Origin: Planctomycetota bacterium
GTDB taxonomy: Bacteria > Planctomycetota > Phycisphaerae > Sedimentisphaerales > Anaerobacaceae
Reading direction: 5' to 3'
DNA length: 32,588 nucleotides
Assembly (NCBI GenBank): GCA_016872975.1
Contig: VGYL01000005.1
Span: 1 to 32,588 of the forward strand
Shown here: positions 3,459 to 30,142 of the stretch, piece by piece
How the letters are laid out: every line of letters starts with the position of its first letter
Position numbering within the stretch: position 1 is the stretch's first letter
Notes under the pieces: generated by a model
Seen by the model: the letters and a program-made list of their open reading frames with translations, nothing else
Databases searched by the model: none
What the model was told of the DNA's origin: nothing
Program-made: the position numbers and the translations under genes

Positions 3459-5046
3459 TCCCCCGGGCCAGCGCGGTGCACGCTCACGCTGGAGAACTCG
3501 ATGTTCTGGAGCACTTCCAGGCGCTCCTCTTCGACGCAGCTCATTTCAGCCGCGTCCCCCGCTTGGACGTACCCGGCTGGACCGTCGCGCTGCCGATTCT
3601 GGCGATCCCACCGACGATGACGCTGGCGGTGCGAAGGCAGGCGCCCCACCAGAAACGGGAAGTTCCGCCCGGATCGCGGCGCATCCGGACCATGGGCAAC
3701 CGCGCGGTGACTGGACACGCCGAACCGCCGAACTGGTTCGTCTCCCTGCTTCTCGGAGCGCTGGCGGCCCTGCCGGTAGCAGCGTGAGCTCAACAGCATC
3801 GCCGTTCGCAGTGGGCCGCCCACGACGAGTTCCGCCTGGCGGTCGAGCCGGCGTCTGGTGGATGTGATCGACGCGGGCGTGTTGCCGCGTTCGTTAACTA
3901 TATACGCCGCGCGGGTTCGGCACGTCCTACCTGGGTTCTGACAACCTGGCGGAGCCGTTAACCAACTCAGCGAATCGGCCCGGAGACGGGGAGAAACGGC
4001 CTCCGGTGACCGCGACGGGCGCGCGCACCTGGCGCACCAAGCCGAACGCGGAGACAAACGGAAAGAGGGAGAACGCGCGAAACGTCGGCCAGTTGGGGAC
4101 TTGCAGAAGCGGCTGTGCCGTCAACAAACTGCGGGGAAAACGTTGCAGGGAAAAGAATTGGCTCCGCGAGACGGACGCATTTCCGGAACCCTCGTGGAGA
4201 ATCTCCGAAGTTGCGCTTGGCGCCCCGAGTGGAGCCGGCCTCGAAACGGCGAATCAACAATGCTGAAGAACTTCTAAGAAACCAAACGGTTTGCAGTTCT
4301 TCTGCCTCTGAAGCTGGCTCTTAACCAAGCCCCGGCCCCGGGGCGCTGGCCGCCGTTCAGACGGAGGCGCTGTCCGCTCCGTTGCTCTCGAAGCACCCGG
4401 TCTTCTTCCCGAAGATCGTTGCTGGCATCCCGCTACTGCTGGCCCCAGGCTCCGGCCCTGCCAATGAGCGGAATCGGAACGGATCGAAGCTCCGGCGCCT
4501 GGGCGCAGGATGGAAGCGAAGACCGCCGTCACGGGCGCGGCGGGCCGGGCGAGAGGAAGCAGAGCGAGGCTTTGGCCACCCTGCTCTACGGCCACAGAGT
4601 CGCCGGAACCACGGCCAGACCAAGTGCCGGATATGGGCCAGGTTGTGGCGGTCCCTCGGGTCGGCGGCCTGCACCACCGTTACGAACGCCGGACGGCGTG
4701 AGACAAGCGCCGGCGCATTCCTCCCATGGGATCGGTGGGTCGTCAGGGCTGTTGCCCACCCCGCGAACCCGCCGCCCGCCGTGACCGAGTGCGTTCGGCG
4801 ATCGGCTGCGCCTCGGAAGCCATCGGCTCCCCACCAGTTCCACCGGAGTCCCGGCAGTCCCTCACTTCCTCACGGATCGTTCCTAGCCGCTGGCTCGCTC
4901 AGCTGGGATTTACGGTAGGCACAGGCTTGCCGCCACTGCTGATTTCGGCGCTCGCGGCCTCGGCAGGCGGCCGGAATGACGGCCGGAGGCGGCACCCAAG
5001 CCCCGGCGCGCCGAAAGCCGCGAAAACCGCGCTGGGGGTTTGACGC

Positions 5047-5062
5047 GGGGGGGGGGGGGGGG
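5047..5062 (+). repeat. Homopolymer tract G16
   Basis: c-G16-t read directly at 5046-5063, just left of the IS1111-type element. Confidence 0.9.
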
Positions 5063-5177
5063 TGTATTCTGAACTCGTCCGGTAGTCCAAAATGATTGAA
5101 TAACGGCGTCGGCTCCAGTCGGCCGGGTAGACTTGGCAGTAACGATCTGACCAAGACTCGGACGAAAGGAGCCGAGC

Positions 5178-6188
5178 ATGTTGATTATAGGCTGTGATTT
5201 GCATACGCGCTTCCAGCGGATCGCCATGCTGGATACACAGACCGGCGAGCTGGTGGAGCGCCGGTTGGAACATGAGAACGGAGAAGCCCGCGCCTTCTAC
5301 GCCGGCCTTCCAGAGCCGGCGCGAGTAGGAATGGAAGCCACCGGCTACAGTCAATGGTTTGAAACCATGCTGGCGGAGCAAGGGCATGAGCTGTGGGTGG
5401 GAGACGCGGCGGAGATCCGGGCGGCGGTGGTGCGCAAGCAGAAGACGGACTCCCGCGATGCGTACCATCTGCTGGACTTGTTGCTGAAGGACAAGTTTCC
5501 ACGCATCTGGACTGCGTCACCCAGGGAGCGCGATGTGCGGCAATTGCTCCGGCATCGGCATAAGCTGGTTGGCTGGCGCACGTCGGTGCGGAACCAGTTG
5601 CACGCTCTGGCGATGGGTGAGGGGATCTGCCGAAAAGGAAAGCTGTGGACGGCGGCGGGCCGCCAGGAACTGGAAGGCCTCGCCCTGGGTCCGTGGGCCA
5701 GCCGTCGGAGGCAGGAACTACTGCAGATGCTGGACTGGCTGGCGGCCCCCATCCGCGCTTTGGACGAGGCAGTGATTCAGGAAGCCGAGCGCCGCCCCGC
5801 CGCCCGGCGCCTCATGCAACAGCGCGGCGTGGGTCCGGTGACGGCCCTGGCGTTTGTGGCGACGATCGGGCCCGTGGAGCGCTTTCGCAACAGCAAGCAG
5901 GTGGTCAGTTACCTGGGGTTGAATCCCCGGGAGTCGAGTAGCGGAGGCAAACAACGGCTGGGACGGATCAGCAAGCAAGGCAATTCGATGCTGCGCTTCT
6001 TGCTGGTGGAAGCCGCGCAGACCGCTGCGCGGGAGGATCCGGAACTGCGGCGGGACTACCTGAGATTGAAGTTCCGTCGTAGCAGTGCGGTAGCCAAAGT
6101 GGCCATCGCGCGAAAGTTGGTGGTGCGGCTGTACTGGAAGCTGCGGCACGCCGGGCAGCCAGGCGCCGCCGGCTCGTATGCAGGGTAG
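5178..6188 (+). CDS. IS110-family transposase (DEDD N-terminal, Transposase_20 C-terminal)
   Basis: MLIIGCDLHTRFQRIAMLDTQTGELVERRL...GMEATGY...KTDSRDAYHL...RGVGPVTALAFVATIGPVERFRNSKQVVSYLGLNPRESSSGGKQRLGRISKQGNSMLR. Confidence 0.93.
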   Translation: MLIIGCDLHTRFQRIAMLDTQTGELVERRLEHENGEARAFYAGLPEPARVGMEATGYSQWFETMLAEQGHELWVGDAAEIRAAVVRKQKTDSRDAYHLLDLLLKDKFPRIWTASPRERDVRQLLRHRHKLVGWRTSVRNQLHALAMGEGICRKGKLWTAAGRQELEGLALGPWASRRRQELLQMLDWLAAPIRALDEAVIQEAERRPAARRLMQQRGVGPVTALAFVATIGPVERFRNSKQVVSYLGLNPRESSSGGKQRLGRISKQGNSMLRFLLVEAAQTAAREDPELRRDYLRLKFRRSSAVAKVAIARKLVVRLYWKLRHAGQPGAAGSYAG

Positions 6189-6541
6189 CCCGGGGATTTC
6201 CGTGGTGGACCGAAGTCCATCGACAAAATGGTGGAGCACCCTGCCTCCCCTGGCAACGGAGAGGGGAGTTCGAACAACGAATCATGGTCTGTGGTGGAAG
6301 ATCGGATAGATGGCTGGTAGAAGCTGATGGTACCGTGGGATTCGAGGGTACGAGTCTTGGTCAGAGGCGGCCAAAGAATCCTGATATGGACGAAGCCGCG
6401 CTTTGCGCAGGCTTCATCCCCGTCCCAGTATGGGGAGCCGTCCGCAGCGTCAAGGGTCTGCGATGAACGGTCCGACAGAAGACGTCGGACCGCCCTTGAC
6501 TCTGCTCCCGGCTCCAAAAAGTCGAGGTGTCGCTTGACAAG
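6180..6541 (+). ncRNA. Candidate seekRNA/bridge RNA in the 3' non-coding part of the IS1111-type element
   Basis: Several hairpins: GCAGGGT/ACCCTGC (6180-6186/6238-6244); TGGAC-CGAA-GTCCA (6206-6219); CTCCCC/GGGGAG (6245-6250/6263-6268); GAAGCCGCGC-TTT-GCGCaGGCTTC (6392-6415); GTCAAGGG[tctgcgatgaa]CGGTCCGAC-agaagac-GTCGGACCG-CCCTTGAC (6449-6500). Confidence 0.55.
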
Positions 6542-6599
6542 GCCGACGCCGTTATAGATGGAAATCTCGGACAAGAGTTGTTCCGTCGCATGTCACAGC

Positions 6600-6866
6600 T
6601 GTCCAAATCAGCCGCGAACCGGGCATGTTGGGCAGGTTAAGTCGCTGATTTTATTGAGGCGGCAGTATGGCGTGAAAAGCAGGTTCTCGTCGGCTTTCAG
6701 ATGCTGTCCAAATTGGCGCCGGCGGGACTCGGGACCCTCCCCGGGCCGCGGGGCACGCCGAAGGCTCGTGCTACGGGCCTCCGGAGCGGTCTGGGGGTCG
6801 GCGGCGGCCTCAGAGGTGCCGCCACGTGCTGTCCAAACTGGCCCGGCTGAGAAGCTAATTTGGACA
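6600..6866. repeat. Possible non-autonomous element or IS remnant with TGTCCAAAT(C/T)AGC termini and two internal copies
   Basis: TGTCCAAATCAGC (6600-6612), TGTCCAAATTGGC (6705-6717), TGTCCAAACTGGC (6830-6842) and inverted GCTAATTTGGACA (6854-6866). Confidence 0.5.
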
Positions 6867-25597: not shown

Positions 25598-27588
25598 TAG
25601 CCCAAGTTCGTCACGGAGAGGGCGGGACTTGAGTTAAGCCCTTTGGAATCAGTTCAGGCTATCGTCGAGTCTGCACTACATTCCTGATCGAAACTGAGGC
25701 GTTCTGGCAGGGTGATCCCGAGCTGATCCAGCAGAGCTTTTTGCTCGGTCGTCGGCGTGGTGACGCGCCGGAGTCGGATCTGATGGCCGTCGGCGGTGGG
25801 CAGGACGATGTCGGCGCTGATCAACCTGCCGAGCAACGCCAGCGCCTGGGCCGGCGAGAAAGCGGAATGTTTCCGGGCCAACAGGTGCTTCAAGGTGACC
25901 CACAGGGCGTAGCCCAAGAAGGCCACCAGGATGTGGGCCTTGGCCCGTCGCTCCAGTTGATGGAAGATGGGCCGGATGGATAGTTCGCTCTTCAGGGCCC
26001 GGAAGGCGGCCTCGGTGAGCTGAATGTAGTTCTTCCACAGCTTGTCCGGCGCCGCCGGGGACAGGTTGGTGCGCAGCAAGTAAGCCCCCTCCCGGGCCCG
26101 CTGCCAGCGCTGGCGGTCCGCGATCAGTTTCCATTCCAGCGTGAGGACACCGGCTTTTTCCGTGACACTCACTTGGTAGAGATCGGCCACCTGGGGATGG
26201 CGCGCCTGGAGGCTGCCCAGCCGCCGCTCGACTTTATGGCGGTCCTTGAGCTGGCCTTCGGCCACCCGCTTCTGGAGGGCCTTGAGCGCCTTTTCCATGC
26301 GCCCGGAGAATCGGCTCCGGATGGCTTGCTCCTTCTGTCGTCGCGCTGTCGATCGGCACAGGAGGTAGGTTTCCTCGCCCTGCGGGATGGGCACCAGTTT
26401 CACTTCGACCTCCCGGCGCACGCGCTCCCAGCCGCTGGTCTCCAGCAAGGACTGCTCGAACTGCTTGAGTTTCGAGCGCGGCGTGCCCACTAGGTACTGA
26501 CCGCCGCGCCGCCGCAACGCCTCCAGATTCTCCTCGCTGACCACGCCGCGGTCGAACACCCAGATCCGGCGTGCCTTCCCATACTTGCGCTCCACCATCC
26601 GCAGCACCGCTTCCAGCGTGGTTACATCCGCGCGGTTGCCATCGAAGGTCACGTAGCTGAGAGGAAAACCCTCCACGTTCACGATCAGCGCGATCACCAC
26701 CTGCTTGCAGTCCGGCCGGTGGTCGCGGGAGTACCCGCGGCGCATCATGGGATCTTTGCGCGCCGCGCCCTCCACGTAGCTGCTGGTCAGGTCGTAGAGC
26801 AGCACATCGAACTCGGCCGCGAACAACTCGCCGTAGCGGCGCGTCAGGTGCTGCTCGAGCTTGGTCTTGTGCGGCAGCAGGCGGTCCAGAGCGCGATACA
26901 GGCGCGTGTGGTTGATCCTACCTTCCTCGATCCCCAGCAGGTCGTCGAGAGCCGTGGCCGGGTACCAGCGCTCTTCAATCGCCAGTTCGCTGCCCGGCGC
27001 GCACAGCCGGTTGATGGCCAGCAATGCCGCCACGCGCGACCAGGTCACCTCGGCCGGATCTTCCTCCCGGTCCAACAGTGGTTCCCAGAAGCGGTCCAGC
27101 CCCAGCCGCTTCCACAACTCCAGTCCCAGTAGACAATCCCCGAAGCGCCGCGGGCGTTCCAGGCGCACCTGCTCGACGAGTACCCGCACTACGGCGGGAT
27201 CGTCCTCGGGAACCTCGGCCTCACACGGGAACAGCTTCAGTTGCCTGCTCTCACCCTGCTGATTGAAGACCTCCGTCGTCTTCAGCCAGCGCGCCTGCCC
27301 GGAGGCGTTGAGTTCGCCCAGGTAGCACAGCCTGCGCTGACGTGGCCCATCCGGGGTCCGGACCGTTTCCACCAGCGACCAATAGGTGTGGGGCTTGCCA
27401 TCCTTGGTGCGCCGGTGGGGCCGCAGAAACATTCTGCGTTGATATTGTCACGGCTTTGCCGGGCCTTCAAGAGGGTAGGTCTGCACTACATCGGACTTCA
27501 GATCGAGCCCTGTTGCAGGCAAAGCACTTCCGCGCCTCATCGCGCCCCAAAAAGCCAAAATCCGCCCGTCCGTGACGAACTTGGGCTA
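25598..27588 (-). mobile_element. IS1634-family insertion sequence
   Basis: Perfect 20-bp terminal inverted repeats TAGCCCAAGTTCGTCACGGA (25598-25617) / TCCGTGACGAACTTGGGCTA (27569-27588); GGGG on both flanks. Confidence 0.92.
25654..27432 (-). CDS. IS1634-family transposase
   Basis: FDVLLYDLTSSYVEG...GYSRDHRPDCKQVVIALIVNVEGFPLSYVTFDGNRADVTTLE...RIWVFDRGVVSEENLEAL...IRPIFHQLERRAKAHILVAFLGYALW. Confidence 0.93.
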   Translation of the reverse strand: MFLRPHRRTKDGKPHTYWSLVETVRTPDGPRQRRLCYLGELNASGQARWLKTTEVFNQQGESRQLKLFPCEAEVPEDDPAVVRVLVEQVRLERPRRFGDCLLGLELWKRLGLDRFWEPLLDREEDPAEVTWSRVAALLAINRLCAPGSELAIEERWYPATALDDLLGIEEGRINHTRLYRALDRLLPHKTKLEQHLTRRYGELFAAEFDVLLYDLTSSYVEGAARKDPMMRRGYSRDHRPDCKQVVIALIVNVEGFPLSYVTFDGNRADVTTLEAVLRMVERKYGKARRIWVFDRGVVSEENLEALRRRGGQYLVGTPRSKLKQFEQSLLETSGWERVRREVEVKLVPIPQGEETYLLCRSTARRQKEQAIRSRFSGRMEKALKALQKRVAEGQLKDRHKVERRLGSLQARHPQVADLYQVSVTEKAGVLTLEWKLIADRQRWQRAREGAYLLRTNLSPAAPDKLWKNYIQLTEAAFRALKSELSIRPIFHQLERRAKAHILVAFLGYALWVTLKHLLARKHSAFSPAQALALLGRLISADIVLPTADGHQIRLRRVTTPTTEQKALLDQLGITLPERLSFDQECSADSTIA

Positions 27589-29334
27589 GGGGCGCAACTT
27601 GTCCCTCTTGACGATGCCTTCGCCTTCCCGGATCACCACCAGTTGGTCGCAGGTCACGTTGGGGAAGCTCTCCACCGAGCCGTTGGGCCAGCGCACGGTG
27701 AGATCCGCGCTGGCAGCGGCGCCCAGGCCGAAGTGCAGGCGGCGGTCGCTCACCGACAGATAGCTGCACTGGGCCAGCACCTCCTGGACCTGCCGGCGCT
27801 CCCCGTAGCGCGCCGTGACCCGCGCGCCGATGGCGCTGCGGTTGGATCTGGTCCCCGTCAGCTTCACCTTCAGCCAGTGGTTGTCCCCGGTGACGTCGTT
27901 GCGCAGCAGCGACGGCGGCTCGTTGATGTTCATGATGAGGACGTCCAGGTCGCCGTCGTTGTCGAAGTCGCCGAAAGCGCAGCCGCGGCTGGCGTGCAGG
28001 GCGCCCACGCCGGGCCCGGCCTCCTCGATCAACTGCTCGAACCGGCCGCCGCCCAGGTTGCGGAAGATGAAGCGCGGCATGCGGTGCGGATACTCGGGAT
28101 ACTGCTTCTCCACCTCGGGGTAGACGCTGCCGCTGACCACGAAGATGTCCGGCAGTCCGTTGTTGTCCAGATCGGCCATGCCCGCGCCCCAGCAGATGAA
28201 ACGCGTCTCCACGCCGAGGCCGGCGCGAATGGTCACGTCTTCGAAGACGCCCTTGCCGCGGTTGGCGTACAGCGCCGGGGTGTCCTCGGTGAAGTGGGTC
28301 TTGAAGATGTCCAGGCGTCCGTCCAGGTTGTAATCGCCGACCGCCACGCCCATGCCGGCCTGCTCCTGGCCGTCTTCATTGAGGCCGAGGCCGCGCTCCA
28401 GGCCCTCCTCGCTGAAGGTGCCGTCGTGGTTGTTGCGGAACAGCAGGCTGGGGGTGGAGTCGCAGGCCACGTAGATGTCCGGCCAGCCGTCGTCGTCGAA
28501 GTCGGCGGCCACCGCGGTGAGGCCGTAACTGCCGGTGCCCTTGCCGATGCCGGAAGGGGCGGTGACGTCGGTGAAGGTGCCGTCGCCGTTGTTGCGGTAA
28601 AGGCAGTGCGTCTCGGGGGGCAGACCCCGGGGGCCGCAGTTGATGGGGATGCCCTTCCAGTTGCAGTTTACGTCCTGGCCGGCGCGAGGGATGGTTTTGA
28701 AGTCGAACTTGAGGTAGTTGGCCACGAACAGATCCAGGCGCCCGTTGCGGTCGTAGTCCACCCAGGTGCAGCCGGCTCCCCAGCGCGGGCCGGGCGCCAG
28801 CAGGCCGGCCTCCTTGGTCACGTCGGTGAAGGTGCCGTCGCCGTTGTTGCGATAGAGGACGTTCTGGCCCCAGTAGGTGATGAACAGGTCCTCGAAGCCG
28901 TCGTTGTTGTAGTCGCCCACGGTCACCCCGTAGGCCCAGCCGGAGCGCGCCAGGCCGGCCTGCTTGGTCACGTCGGTGAAGGTGCCGTCGCGGTTGTTGC
29001 GGTAGAGGCGATTGGTGGCGCCCTCGGGGATGCCGTCCAGTCGGCGGCCGGACAGCACCAGGATGTCCAGCCAGCCGTCGTTGTCGTAATCCAGGAAAGC
29101 GATGCCAGCGCCCATGGTCTCGATGATGTAGTCCACGCGGTCGGCAACGCCGTAGATGACCGGCTCGCGCAAGCCGGCCGAGGCGCCCACGTCGGTGAGC
29201 CGGGCGTGGAAAGGCAGCCCGGAGGGCTTGCCACGCGGGGTGGGCTTGACCCCGCGGGAGGCCATGCCGCCGCGCTGCGCGCGCAGGCCGGCGGCTGGGG
29301 CAGTCAGCAACGCCAGCAGGCCGCGCCGGGTCAT
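27586..29334 (-). CDS. CRTAC1-type protein (FG-GAP/VCBS repeats plus ASPIC/UnbV domain), secreted
   Basis: MTRRGLLALLTAPAAGLRAQ signal; repeated NNGDGTFTDVT, DYDNDGWLDILV, DFDNDGDLDVLIMN; C-terminal ASPIC/UnbV-like SNRSAIGARVTARYGERRQVQEV...HFGLGAAASADLTVRWPNGSVESF. Confidence 0.92.
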   Translation of the reverse strand: MTRRGLLALLTAPAAGLRAQRGGMASRGVKPTPRGKPSGLPFHARLTDVGASAGLREPVIYGVADRVDYIIETMGAGIAFLDYDNDGWLDILVLSGRRLDGIPEGATNRLYRNNRDGTFTDVTKQAGLARSGWAYGVTVGDYNNDGFEDLFITYWGQNVLYRNNGDGTFTDVTKEAGLLAPGPRWGAGCTWVDYDRNGRLDLFVANYLKFDFKTIPRAGQDVNCNWKGIPINCGPRGLPPETHCLYRNNGDGTFTDVTAPSGIGKGTGSYGLTAVAADFDDDGWPDIYVACDSTPSLLFRNNHDGTFSEEGLERGLGLNEDGQEQAGMGVAVGDYNLDGRLDIFKTHFTEDTPALYANRGKGVFEDVTIRAGLGVETRFICWGAGMADLDNNGLPDIFVVSGSVYPEVEKQYPEYPHRMPRFIFRNLGGGRFEQLIEEAGPGVGALHASRGCAFGDFDNDGDLDVLIMNINEPPSLLRNDVTGDNHWLKVKLTGTRSNRSAIGARVTARYGERRQVQEVLAQCSYLSVSDRRLHFGLGAAASADLTVRWPNGSVESFPNVTCDQLVVIREGEGIVKRDKLRP

Positions 29335-29336
29335 TG

Positions 29337-30142
29337 GTAGATTATGGCGCGGTACCGGCCATCGGGCCGGCCCGTTTCCATGTAACCCCCTTTCAAACCG
29401 TACGTGCGGTTTTCCCGCATACGGCTTACCGATGATCTTCCGGGCGCGGCTTGGGCAGCGTAGCGCACGGTTCCCGCCTCCACGCTTCCCCCAGGACGTC
29501 ACCCCTGGACATCCGGTCGTACAGCACGTGGAAACGCCGTGTCTTGCTCTGCTTGGCACACGCCCATAGCTTGCGCTGGAGTTCTCGTACTTTATCGACT
29601 ACCGGGTGGTTGTCCGTTTCCGGCATGCCCTCGTGCTTACCTCCCCACAAGCCCGATCAAAGCAGGGCCCCTTCCCTCCAGCGCGTTGTCTTGCGCGCCT
29701 TCACCGGTACTACCGGCCCCTCGGACTCCCTCCCGGCTCCGCACGACTTCAGCCATCCGGCCTTATACGCACGGTCTTTGCACGACGCGGGCTGCCGGGT
29801 AGGGTCTCTCCTGTTCCACATCCTTCTGTCCAAACGTGCCGCCGCCTCCAAACCCCGGAGAGGTCCAACAGGCGCTCTGCAACCGGACTGCTGTCTGTTG
29901 CCTTCGCCGCGACATGACCGGCTCGGCCCTCTCAAACACCTTTCGGCTGATACTATGACGTGGCTACAGCGTTCACTTGCGTTGCGGCCCGCTTGCTTGC
30001 CCTCCACCCAAAGTGGACTTTCGACACCCCGCTCTGGCCGGTTGGATCTCTCCTTCCGGCTGGGGTCTGCTACCGGGTGCTCCAGCGCTTGCCCGGGCAG
30101 GACTTTCACCTGCAAGAAGAAGGCGTCTTTGTCAGGACGCAC
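29337..30142 (-). mobile_element. Group II intron with most of the RT/maturase ORF deleted
   Basis: Minus strand: 5' GTGCGTCCTGAC at 30142, DI-like CAGGTGAAAGTCCTGCCCGGG, RT N-terminal fragment, domain V AGCCGTATGCGGGAAAACCGCACGTACGGTT (29396-29426), DVI-like 3' end ...CCATAATCTAC. Confidence 0.82.
29426..29650 (-). pseudogene. Residual group II intron reverse transcriptase/maturase N-terminus
   Basis: VDKVRELQRKLWACAKQSKTRRFHVLYDRMSRGDVLGEAW then jumps to intron-ORF C-terminal type sequence (other frame: GTVRYAAQAAPGRSSVSRMRENRTYGLKGG). Confidence 0.85.

What the first reader, a model, noticed from the sequence alone, without database searches (positions are those of the whole stretch)
6180..6555. 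Structured ~350-nt 3' non-coding region of an IS1111-type element: candidate seekRNA/bridge RNA
The transposase ends at 6188 but the subterminal repeat is not reached until 6542. The interval contains at least five strong hairpins, including a nested helix in which GTCAAGGG/CCCTTGAC (8 bp) encloses an 11-nt one-sided loop (tctgcgatgaa) and a 9-bp stem (CGGTCCGAC/GTCGGACCG). IS1111-group elements are known to carry a guide RNA downstream of the transposase, and the IR arrangement fits that group. The specific RNA of this acidobacterial-type element is, as far as I can tell, uncharacterised.
Basis: partly seen in the sequence, partly recalled or inferred. Interest (0 to 1): 0.75.

Follow-up and report, generated by a model that had tools for sequence, protein, structure and literature searches.

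The report
IS1111 bridge RNA with leader-pairing arm
This stretch encodes the guide RNA of a jumping gene (an IS1111-type insertion sequence): its short guide segments match the DNA on both sides of the insertion, and in related elements they change together with the insertion site; unexpectedly, the same RNA also carries a stretch exactly complementary to the start region of the transposase's own messenger RNA, which suggests that the guide RNA may also control its enzyme.

Summary
The window holds a complete 1,466-bp IS1111-group element (5093-6558) with a structured 353-nt non-coding region after the transposase. In 24 elements (this one included) and a second set of 15 found afterwards, the RNA contains a target loop and a donor loop. 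Its right-target guide (6195-6202) and left-target guide (6224-6230) match this element's own flanks. Across elements the guides track each element's own flanks (p<=5e-5 in both sets), and wrong-strand controls are null. One genome with five copies shows the same rule at five sites. The guides lie in the first half of the region.

Two features go beyond published IS1111 elements. (1) The transposase leader folds into a covarying hairpin that hides the ribosome-binding site. (2) A 15-nt arm of the guide RNA (6351-6365) is exactly complementary to part of that hairpin (5146-5160), and this complementarity co-varies in most relatives. Guide-RNA pairing with its own transposase mRNA is the new, untested hypothesis. 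I classify this as a new variant of a known kind.

The parts
5093..6558 (+). Whole IS1111-group element (1466 bp); the exact crossover is ambiguous within a shared ATG
   Evidence: sTIR pair plus 7-bp/3-bp extensions; the joined-flank query matches 5033-5094 and 6558-6618, i.e. ATG is shared by both junctions
5100..5113 (+). Left subterminal inverted repeat ATAACGGCGTCGGC; preceded by the 7-bp extension TGATTGA (5093-5099)
   Evidence: the two repeats co-vary in relatives
6542..6555 (+). Right subterminal inverted repeat GCCGACGCCGTTAT; followed by the 3-bp extension AGA (6556-6558)
5109..5175 (+). Leader hairpin hiding the ribosome-binding site: stem 5109-5116 / 5168-5175 contains the GGAG; inner arms 5123-5136 and about 5150-5161
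   Evidence: -40.9 kcal/mol, z -5.8; similar fold in the relatives; 95.5% of cells paired, 13 double changes against 2.3 shuffled
5146..5160 (+). Leader site TCTGACCAAGACTCG (3' part of the apical loop + 3' arm), perfectly complementary to guide-RNA arm 6351-6365
   Evidence: 15/15 bp; permutation p<=5e-5 in the first set and in the second set
5178..6188 (+). DEDD transposase, 336 aa; D7, E53, D91, D94; GLNPRESSSGG motif from residue 247
   Evidence: Pfam DEDD_Tnp_IS110 and Transposase_20; PDB relatives ISCro4 and IS621; residues
6180..6244 (+). [quoted passage not shown]
   Evidence: outer stem 83% of cells paired with 3 compensated pairs; the five outer pairs of the inner hairpin 94% paired, all compensated
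6195..6202 (+). Right-target guide GATTTCCG; [quoted passage not shown]
   Evidence: rank 1 of 24 flanks
6224..6230 (+). Left-target guide CAAAATG; same sense as the left junction CAAAA|TG, so pairs with the bottom strand
   Evidence: rank 1 of 24 flanks
6245..6268 (+). Spacer hairpin CTCCCC/GGGGAG between target and donor loops
   Evidence: covarying in relatives, e.g. GCCCCGAT/ATCGGGGT in L021
6279..6343 (+). Donor-binding loop; closing stem 6279-6283/6339-6343, inner stem 6286-6289/6300-6303
   Evidence: inner stem 96% of cells paired; outer 69% with compensating changes
6280..6284 (+). Right-donor guide AATCA; complement of TGATT of the left-end extension
   Evidence: tracks TGATT/TGATG/TGATC in relatives, p=6e-4; overlaps the closing stem, so weaker
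6306..6312 (+). Left-donor guide ATAGATG; same as the right-end ATAGA plus core TG
   Evidence: tracks ATAGA/AGAGA/ATCGA/ATACA classes of right end, p<=5e-5
6351..6365 (+). Leader-pairing arm CGAGTCTTGGTCAGA, 3' of the donor loop
   Evidence: perfect complement of 5146-5160; co-varies
6389..6418 (+). Variable hairpin GACGAAGCC/GGCTTCATC
   Evidence: z -3.7; reformed with other sequences in relatives
6434..6515 (+).
   Evidence: z -6.3; present in the window, L003, L005-L007, L009, L010, L020, L029, L035; absent from other relatives
6534..6539 (+). TTGACA, candidate -35 of a circle-junction promoter (with GATGAT at a 17-bp spacing across the RE|LE junction)
   Evidence: a junction promoter is published for ISEc11 (PMC11187229)

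Best explanation
The region is the bridge RNA (seekRNA) gene of an IS1111-group element. The RNA structure starts at the end of the transposase gene. [quoted passage not shown] all four share a TG core. Bound by the DEDD transposase, it brings circle junction and target together for recombination without target duplication. Shown here by comparison: the element's anatomy, the folds, and the guide-to-DNA correspondences. Inferred from the family: transcription, processing, RNP assembly and strand exchange. In addition, the same RNA carries an arm complementary to the loop and 3' arm of the transposase leader hairpin that hides the ribosome-binding site. The complementarity is shown. That it regulates transposase translation, in cis or in trans, is inferred, and the sign of the effect is unknown.
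For: In the first set of 24 elements, the right-target guide scores 5.81 on its own flank against 3.23 on others, and the left-target guide 4.06 against 1.95 (both p<=5e-5). Wrong-strand controls are null, and the window ranks 1/24 for both. In the second set of 15 elements the scores are 7.53 against 4.35 (14/15 rank 1) and 4.23 against 2.15. Five copies in one genome (L089, L091-L094) lie at five sites with right flank (G/A)GGGCACCC, the reverse complement of guide GGGTGCCCC. Donor guides track the element ends. Stems covary. The transposase has both IS110-family domains and is related to IS621 and ISCro4 recombinases. Match order (top-strand match first) is the published IS1111 order (PMC11187229). 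Leader/arm complementarity: cognate -48.3 kcal/mol against -40.0 for permuted pairs; second set -45.2 against -39.1, p<=5e-5 each.
Against: No RNA data are available. The window element is a single copy in its genome and no empty site was found, so its own target rests on one insertion plus the relative L003, which shares target and guides. A few relatives have guides that do not fit their present flanks (L024, L029, L042). The right-donor guide evidence is weaker and overlaps a helix. For the leader arm: known enterobacterial IS1111 elements (ISEc11, IS5075) lack it, L018 and L103 lack it, and in six of the seven cofolds computed (all but the window) the arm did not open the ribosome-binding site.
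Confidence: 0.93

Rival explanations
1. The guide RNA arm 6351-6365 pairs with the leader loop of the transposase mRNA and controls translation or couples enzyme and guide synthesis (an addition to the bridge-RNA function, not an alternative to it).
For: 15-bp perfect complement in the window, longer than the 14-bp sTIR. The site is the apical loop plus 3' arm of the RBS-hiding hairpin, mostly 30-45 nt before ATG. Complementarity is kept with unrelated sequences: GCTTCGGTCCTCC, TCTTGGTCTTCC, AGGGTGGACACC, CTTCAGACCTCA. Precedent for an RBS-hiding transposase leader under sRNA control: ISPpu9 (PMC8450116).
Against: No expression data. Cofolding shows little exposure of the RBS, though the arm binds strongly (-11 to -20 kcal/mol) to leaders that start inside the hairpin (seven elements before the script stopped). 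Absent from ISEc11 and IS5075.
Confidence: 0.5
2. The leader/NCR complementarity is a DNA-level inner inverted repeat bound by the transposase, not an RNA interaction.
For: It is an inverted repeat between the two ends; protein sites can co-evolve.
Against: The distance from the right end differs by about 100 bp between elements with and without the 3' domain. The site coincides with the loop of an RNA hairpin. Departures from Watson-Crick pairing include more G.U (9) than A.C (4) in the sense strand (small numbers).
Confidence: 0.2
3. The structured region is only a 3' UTR/terminator or DNA end structure without guide function.
For: Strong hairpins occur in such regions too; no RNA evidence here.
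Against: Guide segments track each element's own flanks in two sets of elements; terminators would not.
Confidence: 0.03

Closest known systems
IS1111-group seekRNA (ISEc11, ISPa11, ISKpn4; Siddiquee et al. 2024, PMC11187229)
   Same: DEDD transposase, sTIRs with terminal extensions, NCR downstream of tnp, top-strand match 5' of bottom-strand match, no target duplication
   Different: Much diverged transposase (about 31% identity to ISEc11). NCR 353 nt with extra 3' domain. Leader hairpin hiding the RBS and guide-RNA arm complementary to it; no such arm found in ISEc11 or IS5075
IS621/IS110-group bridge RNA (Durrant et al. 2024, PMC11208160)
   Same: Two loops with LTG, RTG, LDG, RDG and a shared core dinucleotide
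   Different: RNA in the right instead of the left end, order of guides reversed, long sTIRs
ISPpu9 with Asr9/Ssr9 (PMC8450116)
   Same: IS110-family element whose transposase leader hides the RBS; [quoted passage not shown]
   Different: In ISPpu9 an antisense RNA (Asr9) opens the leader and Ssr9 sponges Asr9; here the downstream guide RNA itself is complementary to the leader loop

Membership tests
IS110 family, IS1111 group | DEDD (RuvC) domain plus Transposase_20 C-terminal domain | tested here: met
   Pfam 3e-14 and 8.6e-28; D7, E53, D91, D94 and GLNPRESSSGG present
IS110 family, IS1111 group | Subterminal inverted repeats of 7-17 bp with short terminal extensions | tested here: met
   14-bp perfect repeat, extensions TGATTGA and AGA, of conserved type in relatives
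IS110 family, IS1111 group | Long NCR downstream of tnp, short left end | tested here: met
   353 nt between stop and IRR; 85 bp from left tip to ATG
IS110 family, IS1111 group | No target-site duplication | tested here: met
   Flanks share only the ATG overlap at the junctions; no empty site was available to confirm
Bridge RNA / seekRNA | Target guides complementary to top strand of right and bottom strand of left target | tested here: met
Bridge RNA / seekRNA | Donor guides complementary to the joined element ends | tested here: met
   LDG p<=5e-5; RDG p=6e-4 but overlaps a helix
Bridge RNA / seekRNA | Conserved secondary structure with two internal loops | tested here: met
Bridge RNA / seekRNA | RNA transcribed and bound by the transposase | not testable with these tools
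   needs RNA-seq / co-purification
Rfam families | Match to a curated RNA family | tested here: not met
   No match in 5093-6558 at gathering threshold
ISPpu9-type leader control | RBS-hiding transposase leader | tested here: met
   predicted in the window and its relatives
ISPpu9-type leader control | Antisense RNA over the leader opens it | not testable with these tools
   no transcript data; here a same-strand RNA carries the complement

The most novel reading that the evidence does not exclude
In this clade of IS1111 elements the bridge RNA has a second job: an arm behind the donor loop base-pairs with the loop of the RBS-hiding leader of the transposase mRNA, so the guide RNA sets the translation of its own recombinase or couples the two in assembly.
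Probability: 0.45. Interest if true: 0.75.

Novelty: new variant of a known kind. Interest (0 to 1): 0.57.

Why it matters
Bridge RNAs are programmable recombination guides under active development. This clade provides a naturally varied set of about 40 elements with readable guides and many different targets. If the leader pairing is real, it would be the first case I could find of a recombination guide RNA that also controls its own enzyme's mRNA. It would bear on how IS1111 elements keep transposase and guide in balance, and it can be tested with simple reporter fusions.

Tried and rejected
Rfam search: no family in the element. Viral contigs: no relatives. The window's own relatives (99 genomes) and 392 genomes of its phylum: no close copy. 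Joined-flank search in the own genome: no empty site. Target as a repeated genomic motif: GTCCAAANTGGNAAT has one other match in the own genome, with one mismatch. GTCAAGGG...CCCTTGAC as the guide helix: rejected because the stem and loop hardly vary across elements with different targets and are absent from many relatives. Simple toehold-type opening of the RBS by the arm: not supported by cofolding in six of the seven elements computed, the window being a partial exception (the script then stopped on an error). Leader/NCR helix as a general IS1111 feature: not seen in ISEc11, IS5075 or L062. A circle-junction promoter: only a consensus match. Structure prediction was not run because sequence family and PDB matches sufficed.

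Full report
Element. The window carries one IS1111-group element, 5093-6558. Its 336-aa product (5178-6188) matches DEDD_Tnp_IS110 and Transposase_20 and, by sequence, the solved recombinases ISCro4 and IS621. It keeps D7, E53, D91, D94 and the GL-P----SG motif as GLNPRESSSGG. The 14-bp subterminal repeats 5100-5113 and 6542-6555 are perfect inverses, with a 7-bp left and a 3-bp right extension; the 7-bp left extension is stated for ISEc11 in PMC11187229, the 3-bp right one is from my own knowledge of the group. It is the only copy in its genome. None of 99 relatives or 392 genomes of its phylum has a close homologue at the E-values used, whereas eight MAGs titled Acidobacteria or Terriglobia encode relatives with 67-82% identity.

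Observation. The 353 nt between stop and right repeat fold better than shuffles (z -4.0). The quoted nested helix is at 6449-6500 exactly as described; that domain has z -6.3.

Comparison set. Genome searches gave 24 non-redundant elements, the window included, with both ends identifiable, 46-82% identical to the window transposase. A later search gave 15 further elements used as a second set, plus four extra copies of one of them.

Guides. Directly after tnp, before a conserved TGGT, lies a variable segment that is the reverse complement of the right flank: GATTTCCG against TGGAAATC in the window, ACCGGACA against TGTCCGGT in L046, AAAAGTCA against TGACTTTT in L035, GGGTGGCCG against CGGCCACCC in L037. 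After the hairpin that follows, a second variable segment has the sense of the left flank: CAAAATG in the window. Scored in fixed register with all flanks permuted, own flanks win: 5.81 against 3.23 and 4.06 against 1.95, p<=5e-5 each; scoring against the wrong strand gives nothing. In the second set, right guides rank first in 14 of 15 and left guides in 11 of 15, p<=5e-5. Anchors in both sets were placed by eye on conserved letters, so the second set is not a fully blind test. In the second set the right-guide register could move by one base either way, equally for non-cognate flanks. One genome holds five copies with right flanks GGGGCACCC (four) or AGGGCACCC (one) and left flanks ending A(C/T)AT; the guide reads GGGTGCCCC. 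In the donor loop, ATAGATG tracks the right end (ATAGA, AGAGA, ATCGA, ATACA classes; p<=5e-5) and AATCA tracks TGATT/TGATG/TGATC of the left extension (p=6e-4), although AATCA also lies in the closing stem. Permutation ignores kinship between elements, but several target classes recur in diverged elements and near relatives differ. The top-strand match lies 5' of the bottom-strand match, as published for IS1111 and reversed in IS110. Core TG is shared by the four guides in the window (in the right-target guide as a G.T wobble), as the bridge-RNA model requires (PMC11208160).

Structure. On the sequence-only alignment the proposed stems pair in 79% of cells, with 68 double changes against 28.9 +/- 4.7 after shuffling, and drop when slid. 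The inner hairpin of the target loop pairs in 94% with compensating changes at five of five outer pairs.

3' domain. Its 8-bp stem never varies and its loop hardly does, so covariation says nothing about that stem; the apical and outer stems are reformed with other letters. It is not a guide. A search of ten genomes found it only at recognisable element ends, apart from one weak three-mismatch hit. Its function is unknown; RNA stability or transposase contact are guesses.

Leader. The 80-nt leader folds to -40.9 kcal/mol in the window (z -5.8), with the ribosome-binding GGAG inside an 8-bp stem. Similar folds are predicted in the other elements, and the stem covaries. The 15 nt at 6351-6365 are a perfect complement of 5146-5160, the 3' part of that hairpin's loop and its 3' arm. 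Many relatives keep 12-15 bp with changed letters. Cognate pairs are more stable than permuted ones in the first set (-48.3 against -40.0) and the second (-45.2 against -39.1), p<=5e-5 each. Exceptions are L018 and L103, and several relatives have only 6-8 consecutive bp. The known elements ISEc11 and IS5075 lack it. In the seven cofolds that ran before the script failed, the arm binds weakly (about -2 to -6 kcal/mol) to the complete leader and strongly (-11 to -20) to leaders starting inside the hairpin, and exposes the binding site only partly and only in the window. The direction of any control is therefore open. The nearest precedent is ISPpu9, whose RBS-hiding leader is opened by an antisense RNA that is itself sponged by a downstream RNA (PMC8450116). 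Searches of the open-access library found no report of a bridge RNA complementary to its transposase leader; most subscription papers and preprints were not covered.

Verdict. The element is a member of a known kind. The leader-pairing arm and accessory domain make it a variant worth testing.

Noticed in passing
L003:3842-3920: Right end of the relative L003 is duplicated in tandem (about 31 bp: TTGACAACGCCGACGCTGTTATAGATGGAAA twice), including the first bases of the target.
   Followed up: no
window 5127-5134 and the matching place in relatives: The leader bulge reads GTANNCT (TAGACT, TAAACT, TACACT, TATTCT ...), with T1 A2 T6 conserved like a -10 box; a start there would remove the 5' arm of the RBS-hiding hairpin. 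No -35 is conserved.
   Followed up: partly
L069 and L079: Element 3' ends (NCR with right repeat) without a recognisable transposase; in L069 the orphan guide still matches its own right flank, reminiscent of orphan ssr9 copies of ISPpu9.
   Followed up: partly
window 5040-5070: TTGACG, a run of 16 G and TGTATTCT directly upstream of the insertion: promoter-like, so read-through into the element is possible; the G run could also be an assembly artefact.
   Followed up: no
window 6600-6866: Three forward and one inverted copies of TGTCCAAANTGG-like words beside the element (13 in the window against 5.3 expected).
   Followed up: partly
window 29325-30115 (-): Rfam group II intron pieces (RF02003, RF00029).
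   Followed up: no
window 25654-27432 (-): DDE_Tnp_1 transposase gene, a second mobile element.
   Followed up: no
L021, L037, L040, L045, L085, L089, L098, L102, L105, L107: Many relatives share one kind of right target, such as GGGGCACCC, GGGCCACCC or GCGGCACCC; what the target is was not determined.
   Followed up: no
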